Shown in pieces: positions 30,135-32,268 of a DNA stretch of 64,000 nucleotides (position 1 is its first letter; every line of letters begins with the position of its first letter). The notes beneath the pieces are model-generated. The model saw only the letters and a list, made by a program, of their open reading frames with translations. It ran no database searches and had not been told where the DNA came from. Source of the DNA: Mycobacteriales bacterium (GTDB taxonomy: Bacteria > Actinomycetota > Actinomycetes > Mycobacteriales > QHCD01). The position numbers were made by a program, and so were the translations under genes. The stretch is from contig DASXJE010000226.1 in assembly GCA_036497565.1 (NCBI GenBank), positions 1 to 64,000 of the forward strand, written 5' to 3'.

Positions 30135-30186
30135 GCAGGTCTGACCTGCATCCTCAGGGTTGCACGTGCCTGATTGAAGTGCAACC
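30135..30186. promoter_or_regulatory. Two dyads upstream of the SRPBCC-ArsR operon
   Basis: GCAGGT (30135-30140) and ACCTGC (30144-30149) flank CTG. GGTTGCAC (30158-30165) and GTGCAACC (30179-30186) are exact reverse complements 13 bases apart. Both lie 28-80 bases upstream of the SRPBCC start. They are the natural candidates for the ArsR operator. Confidence 0.45.
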
Positions 30187-30276: not shown

Positions 30277-30297
30277 TAGAATCGAACGCATGTTCGA
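30277..30297 (+). promoter_or_regulatory. LexA (SOS) box on a leaderless start: TAGAAT -10 plus TCGAAC-N4-GTTCGA
   Basis: TCGAAC (30282-30287), four bases, and GTTCGA (30292-30297) match the mycobacterial/actinobacterial SOS box without mismatch. The ATG of the DUF222-HNH gene (30290-30292) sits inside the spacer and right arm. TAGAAT at 30277-30282 is a good -10 element placed 7 bases before the ATG, so the transcript is probably leaderless. LexA bound here would cover the -10 element and start site. No Shine-Dalgarno sequence is visible. Confidence 0.75.
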
Positions 30298-31663
30298 ATC
30301 TTTGCAAGATGTCGATACGTGCGGGGACAAGGTCGCGGCCCTGCGCGCGGCTGCCCCTGGGCCGGCGGTGATGACGGCGCTGCGGTCGATCGATCCGCGG
30401 TCGGTGTCGCCCGGTGCCCAGGTCGACATGCTCGCCGCGTGGGAGAAGGCGGCGGCCTGGGTGGCCGCGGCGCAACAGGATGTGCTCGCGGCGCTCGACG
30501 GCAAGCCGGACGAGGTCCTGTCGGCCGATGACTGGACGCGGGAAGAGGTCGCCGCGGCGCTGCACCTGTCGACCTGCACCGCCGACCGTCGGCTGGAGGT
30601 GGCCCGCATGTTGGTCCGGCGACTGCCCGGGGTGCGCCGGGCATTGGAGGCAGGGTCGGTCGACTATCGAAAGGCCGTGGCGATCGCGGAGGCGACCGAA
30701 AACCTCGACGCCGCCGGCGCCCTGGCCGTGGAGGCCCGTGTCCTCCCGAAGGCGCCCGACCAGACCCTCGCCGAGCTGCGCCGTACCCTCCGGCGGGTCG
30801 TGATCGCCGTCGATCCGCGGGCTGCGGCGGAGGCGCACCGTCAGGCGATAGGCGAACGGTGCGTGCGCATGTGGCCGGTCGAGGACGGGATGGCCGAGCT
30901 CTACGCCAAGCTGCCCGCGGAGGACGCTGCCGTCGTGATGACCGCCCTCGACACAGTGGCTGCGGGAATGGCCGGCGGCGGATCCGGCGGCGTGAGCGAC
31001 AATCCGCCGATCGAGGCCCGGCGGGCCGATGCGCTCACCCGGCTCGCCGCCGCGACCCTTTCCGACCCCGACCTGCCGACCCGCCACGGCCGCCGCCCGC
31101 ACATCCAGGTCACCGTGTCGGCCGAAACCCTGCTGGGTGACGGCGACGAACCCGGTGAGCTGGCGGGCTACGGCCCGGTGACCGCGGAGACGGCCCGCCG
31201 GATCGCCGCGGAGGGGATGTGGCGCCGGCTGCTCCTCGAACCCGGCACCGGACGACTCCTCGACTACGGACGCACGACCTACCGGCCACCGGCGGATCTC
31301 ACCGAGTTCCTGCTCGCCCGCGACCGGGTCTGCGGCTTCCCCGGGTGCAACATCCCGGCGGCCCGCTGCGACCTCGATCACACCGTCCCGTTCGGGAGAG
31401 GATCGACCAGCGCGGCCAACATGGGTGCGCTCTGCCGCCGCCACCACCGGGCCAAACACGAGGGCGGTTGGCGCCTCACTCGGCACGGTGACGAGCGCTG
31501 CACCTGGACCAGCCCCGCCGGCCACAGCTACGACTCCGCGCCCAGCTACCCCGCATCCCCTGGCAATCCCGCACCTCCTGACAGTCCCGCCGCACCCGGC
31601 AATCCCGCGGCACCTGCGCCGGCGGCCGAGCCGCCCGGCGGGGATGCCACCCTGGGGGAATGA
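30290..31663 (+). CDS. DUF222-HNH endonuclease-like protein (13E12 repeat family type)
   Basis: A 457-residue protein. The helical DUF222 domain covers about residues 30-300, and a C-terminal HNH motif follows from about residue 345: 'CGFPGC', 'CDLDHTVPFGRGSTSAANM' and 'LCRRHHRAKHEGGW'. The tail is a Pro/Ala-rich repeat ('GNPA' and 'DSPA' units). In Mycobacterium this family is known as the 13E12 repeat proteins, present in many copies and partly LexA-regulated; the biological role is not settled. The start is the ATG at 30290 inside a perfect SOS box. Its stop overlaps the DUF1684 gene (ATGA). Damage-induced nuclease activity is a reasonable inference. Confidence 0.88.
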   Translation: MFESLQDVDTCGDKVAALRAAAPGPAVMTALRSIDPRSVSPGAQVDMLAAWEKAAAWVAAAQQDVLAALDGKPDEVLSADDWTREEVAAALHLSTCTADRRLEVARMLVRRLPGVRRALEAGSVDYRKAVAIAEATENLDAAGALAVEARVLPKAPDQTLAELRRTLRRVVIAVDPRAAAEAHRQAIGERCVRMWPVEDGMAELYAKLPAEDAAVVMTALDTVAAGMAGGGSGGVSDNPPIEARRADALTRLAAATLSDPDLPTRHGRRPHIQVTVSAETLLGDGDEPGELAGYGPVTAETARRIAAEGMWRRLLLEPGTGRLLDYGRTTYRPPADLTEFLLARDRVCGFPGCNIPAARCDLDHTVPFGRGSTSAANMGALCRRHHRAKHEGGWRLTRHGDERCTWTSPAGHSYDSAPSYPASPGNPAPPDSPAAPGNPAAPAPAAEPPGGDATLGE

Positions 31664-32268
31664 CCACGCTGAGCCTGCTCGACTGGCGCCGCCGGGTGCA
31701 CGACCTCTACGAGGAGGTGCGTGGGTCGGGTGATCCGGCCGCGGCTCATGCGCGGTGGCGGGCGGGGCGCGACGAGTTGTTCGCGGGACACCCGGATTCA
31801 CCGCTGCCGCCGGAGGAGCGGGCCGGGTTCGCTGGGCTGCCCTATGCGCCGTACGACCCGGCGATGCGGTTCGTCGTCGGGGTCGACACCGATCTGCCCG
31901 CGCAGCGCTGGGAGGTGCCGACTGCGACCGATGGTGTCGTGCCGTTCGAACGGATCGGCCGGGTGCTGCTGCCCGATCTCGGTTCGCTCGACGTGTGGTG
32001 GCTGGACTCCTATGGCGGCGGCGTGTTCCTGCCGGTGCGCGACGGGCTGGCGGGGCCGAAGACATACGGCGGCGGGCGGTACCTCCTCGACACCGTCAAG
32101 GGCGCCGATCTGGGTGGCGACGTCCGGGCCGGGAAGCTGGTCGTGGACCTGAATTTCGCCTACAACCCGTCGTGCGCCTACGACCCACGCTGGCAGTGTC
32201 CGCTGGCCCCGCCCGGCAACGTCCTGTCCGCCCCGCTGGCGGTCGGCGAGCTCGTTCGAGCCGGGTGA
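31660..32268 (+). CDS. DUF1684 family protein
   Basis: A 202-residue DUF1684 protein. The signature region runs 'SYGGGVFLPVRDG', 'TYGGGRYLLDTVKG' and then 'LNFAYNPSCAYDPRWQCP', with the two Cys conserved in the family. No function is established. It is translationally coupled to the DUF222-HNH gene by an ATGA overlap, so it may share the SOS-controlled transcript. Confidence 0.88.
   Translation: MTTLSLLDWRRRVHDLYEEVRGSGDPAAAHARWRAGRDELFAGHPDSPLPPEERAGFAGLPYAPYDPAMRFVVGVDTDLPAQRWEVPTATDGVVPFERIGRVLLPDLGSLDVWWLDSYGGGVFLPVRDGLAGPKTYGGGRYLLDTVKGADLGGDVRAGKLVVDLNFAYNPSCAYDPRWQCPLAPPGNVLSAPLAVGELVRAG

What the first reader, a model, noticed from the sequence alone, without database searches (positions are those of the whole stretch)
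30277..30297. A perfect LexA box sits on the leaderless start codon of a DUF222-HNH gene
TCGAAC-N4-GTTCGA matches the mycobacterial SOS box exactly. The ATG lies inside the box, and TAGAAT ends 7 bases before it, so transcription and translation probably start at the same point. LexA bound here would block both. DUF222-HNH (13E12) proteins are linked to LexA control in Mycobacterium, and here the overlapping DUF1684 gene would be drawn into the same response. This suggests a damage-inducible nuclease plus partner unit.
Basis: partly seen in the sequence, partly recalled or inferred. Interest (0 to 1): 0.6.

Follow-up and report, generated by a model that had tools for sequence, protein, structure and literature searches.

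The report
LexA box embedded in start codon
A bacterial DNA-damage switch site sits exactly on the promoter and first codon of a probable DNA-cutting enzyme gene, a layout that recurs on the same gene family across many Actinomycetes and fits the known SOS control of that family, so it is well supported but largely ordinary.

Summary
Window 30282-30297 reads TCGAACGCATGTTCGA, a perfect mycobacterial-type SOS box. The ATG of a DUF222-HNH (13E12-type) gene lies inside it (30290), and TAGAAT (30277-30282) shares its last base with the box. Chance expectation is about 0.01 per window. The same composite (TANNNTCGAACNNATGTTCGA) occurs in 65 of 299 genomes of the order and 54 of 297 of the class, never in the reversed control; in 46 of 63 readable loci the ATG opens a DUF222 gene. 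Six DUF222 copies in this genome have the layout. The genome encodes a normal LexA. Best explanation: a LexA-repressed, leaderless promoter in which operator, transcription start and start codon coincide. LexA control of 13E12/HNH genes is published for M. tuberculosis, whose refined box motif already contains the start codon, so this is a new member of a known kind. The partner idea fails as a conserved unit: DUF1684 overlaps (ATGA) and may be co-transcribed here, but none of 20 DUF1684 relatives has DUF222 or a LexA box beside it. LexA binding, transcript start, induction and nuclease activity are inferred, not shown. Side lead: actinobacterial phages use the same layout on small genes, including ImmA/IrrE-like proteases.

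The parts
30277..30282 (+). TAGAAT, -10 hexamer (TANNNT), sharing its last T with the LexA box; 7 nt before the ATG
30282..30297 (+). perfect LexA/SOS box TCGAACGCATGTTCGA
30290..30292 (+). ATG start codon inside the box; predicted transcription start (+1)
   Evidence: comparative position
30290..31663 (+). DUF222-HNH (13E12-type) gene, 457 aa
   Evidence: Pfam DUF222 E=2.2e-36
31331..31456 (+). HNH motif CGFPGC...DLDH...N...CRRHHRAK (residues 348-389)
   Evidence: conserved columns
31660..32268 (+). DUF1684 gene, 202 aa, overlapping the DUF222 stop by ATGA; probable passenger on the same transcript
   Evidence: pairing not conserved

Best explanation
This is a LexA-repressed leaderless promoter of a DUF222-HNH gene. 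In undamaged cells a LexA dimer covers the end of the -10 element, the transcription start and the first eight bases of the gene, so RNA polymerase cannot start. After DNA damage RecA triggers LexA self-cleavage. Transcription then starts at the A of the ATG, the ribosome initiates on the 5'-terminal AUG without a leader, and the DUF222-HNH protein is made. DUF1684 is probably read from the same mRNA by coupling at ATGA. The start codon can sit in the box without cost because the preferred box centre (RNRY followed by G) already contains an RYG triplet. Shown: the sequence anatomy, recurrence of the layout, a LexA gene in the genome. Inferred: binding, start point, induction, nuclease action.
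For: Perfect box, 0.01 expected per window. The composite TANNNTCGAACNNATGTTCGA is in 65/299 genomes of the order and 54/297 of the class; control 0. In 46 of 63 readable loci the ATG opens a DUF222 ORF. Among 34 DUF222 genes chosen without regard to the box, 16 have a box with at most 1 mismatch upstream against 0 of 34 in-gene controls. Of the 15 of those with an ATG in the box, 12 have it in frame and 12 have TANNNT ending 6-8 nt before it. Own genome: 12 perfect boxes, 9 with NNATG in one orientation (p about 1e-6). LexA present (TIGR00498 E=1.7e-75) with two boxes upstream of its gene. Box centres of 30 unselected boxes: RNRY 23, RYRY 14. Literature: HNH 13E12 genes in the M. tuberculosis LexA regulon and refined motif MKWMTCGAAMRYWTGTTCGA (PMC4181829); five HNH genes RecA-dependent under mitomycin C (PMC8151990); [quoted passage not shown]
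Against: No clear -35 in the window copy and no sigma-70-type match. The reading frame stays open 70 codons upstream, with one in-frame GTG at 30179. Not every DUF222 gene has a box: 14 of the 34 had only 3 or more mismatches. No expression or binding data exist for this organism.
Confidence: 0.82

Rival explanations
1. The gene is leadered and starts upstream (for example GTG 30179); the box is then inside the coding region or only an operator for a distant promoter.
For: Open frame 70 codons upstream with one in-frame GTG; no -35 next to the TAGAAT.
Against: No Shine-Dalgarno string in the 29 nt before the box ATG. GTG 30179 lies in an inverted repeat of the divergent ArsR/AHSA1 intergenic region. 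In relatives the -10-to-ATG spacing of 6-8 nt and the frame are kept, and several have in-frame stops within 7-15 codons upstream.
Confidence: 0.08
2. The DUF222-HNH and DUF1684 proteins form a co-evolved damage-inducible functional unit.
For: ATGA overlap and same strand, so shared transcription is likely.
Against: None of 20 DUF1684 relatives (E<1e-37) in other genomes has DUF222 next to it, and none has a LexA box within 400 nt. Only one genome shows the pair.
Confidence: 0.07
3. The palindrome is a chance match without function.
For: One short site; no experiment.
Against: 0.01 expected; repeated at the same position on paralogues and in many genera.
Confidence: 0.02
4. Another repressor, such as an ArsR-family protein, acts at this box instead of LexA.
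For: An ArsR gene is close by; the authors of PMC8151990 speculate that ArsR proteins may occlude SOS boxes.
Against: The perfect match is to LexA's site; the ArsR/AHSA1 promoter region has its own perfect inverted repeat 30158-30186.
Confidence: 0.03

Closest known systems
LexA-controlled 13E12 (REP13E12, DUF222-HNH) genes of Mycobacterium tuberculosis
   Same: Same domain family, same box, multi-copy; the refined Mtb motif MKWMTCGAAMRYWTGTTCGA (PMC4181829) contains the WTG at the same place.
   Different: Different lineage; the window gene is followed by an overlapping DUF1684 gene, which is not part of the known pattern.
Leaderless lexA transcript of M. tuberculosis (PMC2897130)
   Same: Transcription and translation start coincide on an SOS gene.
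   Different: That is lexA itself; here the start codon lies inside the operator. The paper does not discuss HNH genes.
Bacillus-type LexA box CGAACRNRYGTTCG (from memory, not checked here)
   Same: RNRY centre, found here in 23 of 30 unselected boxes.
   Different: From another phylum; start-codon use is not part of that definition.

Membership tests
Mycobacterial-type SOS box / LexA regulon | TCGAAC-N4-GTTCGA palindrome near the transcription start | tested here: met
   12/12 match at 30282-30297
Mycobacterial-type SOS box / LexA regulon | host encodes LexA | tested here: met
   PF01726 E=5.9e-29; TIGR00498 E=1.7e-75
Mycobacterial-type SOS box / LexA regulon | LexA binding and RecA-dependent induction | not testable with these tools
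   needs gel shift, ChIP, expression data
13E12 / DUF222-HNH family | DUF222 domain | tested here: met
   126 bits against a cut-off of 24.4
13E12 / DUF222-HNH family | C-terminal HNH motif | tested here: met
   motif at residues 348-389; conserved H and N columns in relatives. The Pfam HNH model itself does not reach E 0.001 on this protein
13E12 / DUF222-HNH family | several copies per genome | tested here: met
   14 DUF222 matches in this genome
13E12 / DUF222-HNH family | nuclease activity | not testable with these tools
   no solved relative; single-sequence model unusable, pLDDT 41
Leaderless genes | -10 hexamer 6-8 nt before RTG and no Shine-Dalgarno | tested here: met
   7 nt, none found
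Leaderless genes | mapped 5' end at the start codon | not testable with these tools
   no transcript data
DUF222-HNH plus DUF1684 unit | pair conserved in other genomes | tested here: not met
   0 of 20 relatives

The most novel reading that the evidence does not exclude
One DNA word serves three jobs at once: operator, transcription start and leaderless start codon. Selection keeps it on DUF222-HNH genes across Actinomycetes, and phages have adopted it for small genes, among them ImmA/IrrE-like proteases, tying prophage switching to host LexA.
Probability: 0.45. Interest if true: 0.5.

Novelty: new member of a known kind. Interest (0 to 1): 0.33.

Why it matters
If true, the start codons of many poorly annotated DUF222-HNH and prophage genes can be fixed from the DNA alone, and the damage response of uncultured Actinomycetes becomes readable. 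It also points to a shared SOS trigger for a large, multi-copy nuclease-like family of unknown function, and for prophage genes. For this one gene the finding itself is expected from M. tuberculosis.

Tried and rejected
Single-sequence AlphaFold of the DUF222 protein gave pLDDT 41 and was not used. No PDB relative by sequence. PADLOC and NCBIfam gave nothing for the two window proteins. The MFE/MFD N-terminus of all 46 composite loci was not counted as evidence, because the pattern ATGTTCGA forces it. Among 30 unselected boxes only 8 hold an ATG, so the layout is not a general property of SOS boxes. Davis 2002 and Smollett 2012 are not held, so an earlier explicit description there cannot be excluded. 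Carriage by mobile elements was considered: DUF222 is rare in phage and plasmid records and only partial matches were found.

Full report
OBSERVATION. The window reads ...GTTCACTAGAATCGAACGCATGTTCGAATC.... TAGAAT is 30277-30282, the box TCGAACGCATGTTCGA is 30282-30297, and the ATG is 30290-30292. The box is perfect and is the only perfect one in 64 kb; shuffles give 0.01. The ATG opens a 457-residue DUF222 protein with an HNH motif near its C-terminus. A DUF1684 gene follows with an ATGA overlap.

OWN GENOME. Fourteen DUF222 matches are found, many on contigs that end inside the gene. Twelve perfect boxes exist; 9 hold NNATG in one orientation. Six of these are DUF222 starts (window, C12, C230, C125, C29, C146), four with TAGAAT and two with CATAAT in the same place. 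A seventh DUF222 copy (C215) has the ATG two bases earlier in its box, out of frame with the gene in my reading. Other boxes lie at lexA (two boxes), near an ImuB-like gene, and on the start of a HEPN_SAV_6107 gene. The ImuB-like assignment is from reading its sequence only. The genome therefore appears to have an ordinary SOS regulon with a full LexA.

OTHER GENOMES. TANNNTCGAACNNATGTTCGA is in 65 of 299 genomes of the order (23 of 76 genera) and 54 of 297 of the class, with none for the reversed pattern; the reversed pattern has a different CpG content, so it is only a rough control. Of 65 distinct loci read, 2 are cut off; 46 of the other 63 open a DUF222 ORF exactly at the ATG. The rest include two DNA polymerase IV genes and a PcrA/UvrD-like helicase, so other repair genes share the layout; ten open only short frames. 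Starting from DUF222 genes instead, 16 of 34 have a box with at most one mismatch upstream, and 0 of 34 in a control stretch inside the gene. Where the box holds an ATG, it is in frame in 12 of 15 (p about 3e-4 for independent genes; these are partly related copies) and TANNNT ends 6-8 nt before it in 12 of 15. Two registers occur: ATG at box position 9 (as here) and at position 7.

WHY IT FITS. In 30 boxes taken without regard to start codons, one per genome, the four central bases are RNRY in 23 and RYRY in 14. RNRY followed by the fixed G contains RYG, so ATG or GTG can sit in the box without loss to LexA. Only 8 of the 30 actually hold an ATG; the layout is thus typical of DUF222 genes, not of SOS boxes in general. 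In the 46 DUF222 loci the two free bases before the ATG are purine (43 of 46) then pyrimidine (46 of 46), which suits both LexA and a pyrimidine/purine transcription start.

MECHANISM. LexA on the box covers the end of the -10 element through +8 and should exclude RNA polymerase. Damage, RecA and LexA self-cleavage open it. The transcript would begin with AUG; [quoted passage not shown] All steps after the sequence anatomy are inference from these families. LexA does not block translation itself. The window copy lacks a recognisable -35, so the promoter may be weak.

PARTNER. DUF1684 would be read from the same message here, but 20 clear relatives in other genomes, including the same-family genome G011, have no DUF222 within 1.5 kb and no box within 400 nt. 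It is best called a passenger.

KNOWN WORK. PMC4181829 places HNH 13E12 genes in the M. tuberculosis LexA regulon and gives the motif MKWMTCGAAMRYWTGTTCGA, which already contains the start codon position. PMC8151990 shows RecA-dependent induction of five HNH genes. PMC2897130 shows a leaderless lexA transcript. I therefore file this as a new member of a known kind. I found no paper in the held library that states the start-codon overlap as a family-wide rule, but two key papers are not held.

PHAGES. The same composite is in 101 stretches of the viral collection; some are chance. Recurrent ones open phrog_37605 (81 aa) and phrog_37248 genes in Mycobacterium abscessus prophages, and Peptidase_M78 (ImmA/IrrE-like) genes. 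In Glutamicibacter phage BIM BV-113 the protease, with a one-mismatch box on its ATG, lies between a helix-turn-helix gene and the integrase. This is the most interesting lead from the session.

Noticed in passing
L202, L212, L233, L249, L257, L298 (4993), L299 (2993): Phages and prophages of Actinomycetes carry the same -10/LexA box/ATG layout on small genes: phrog_37605, phrog_37248 and ImmA/IrrE-like proteases, the last beside repressor-like and integrase genes in one phage. GenBank starts phiGD22-1 gene 100 upstream of the box ATG.
   Followed up: partly
window 30158-30186: Perfect inverted repeat GGTTGCAC-N13-GTGCAACC (0.03 expected) in the intergenic region of the divergent AHSA1/ArsR genes; probable ArsR operator.
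   Followed up: partly
own genome, contigs C12, C29, C47, C117, C121, C125, C139, C146, C171, C201, C210, C230, C299: DUF222 copies are up to 95-97% identical over hundreds of bases and many contigs end inside one, which suggests recent gene conversion or duplication, as reported for REP13E12 in M. tuberculosis (PMC13061034).
   Followed up: partly
L017 1501-1516 (own genome C18:33249): A SAV_6107-type HEPN gene also has its ATG inside a perfect LexA box.
   Followed up: no
L030, L040-L042, L048, L144-L146, L150, L161: Some composite sites open only very short frames (3-67 codons); L041 and L042 are alike in two genomes. Possible small SOS peptides or starts of other genes.
   Followed up: no
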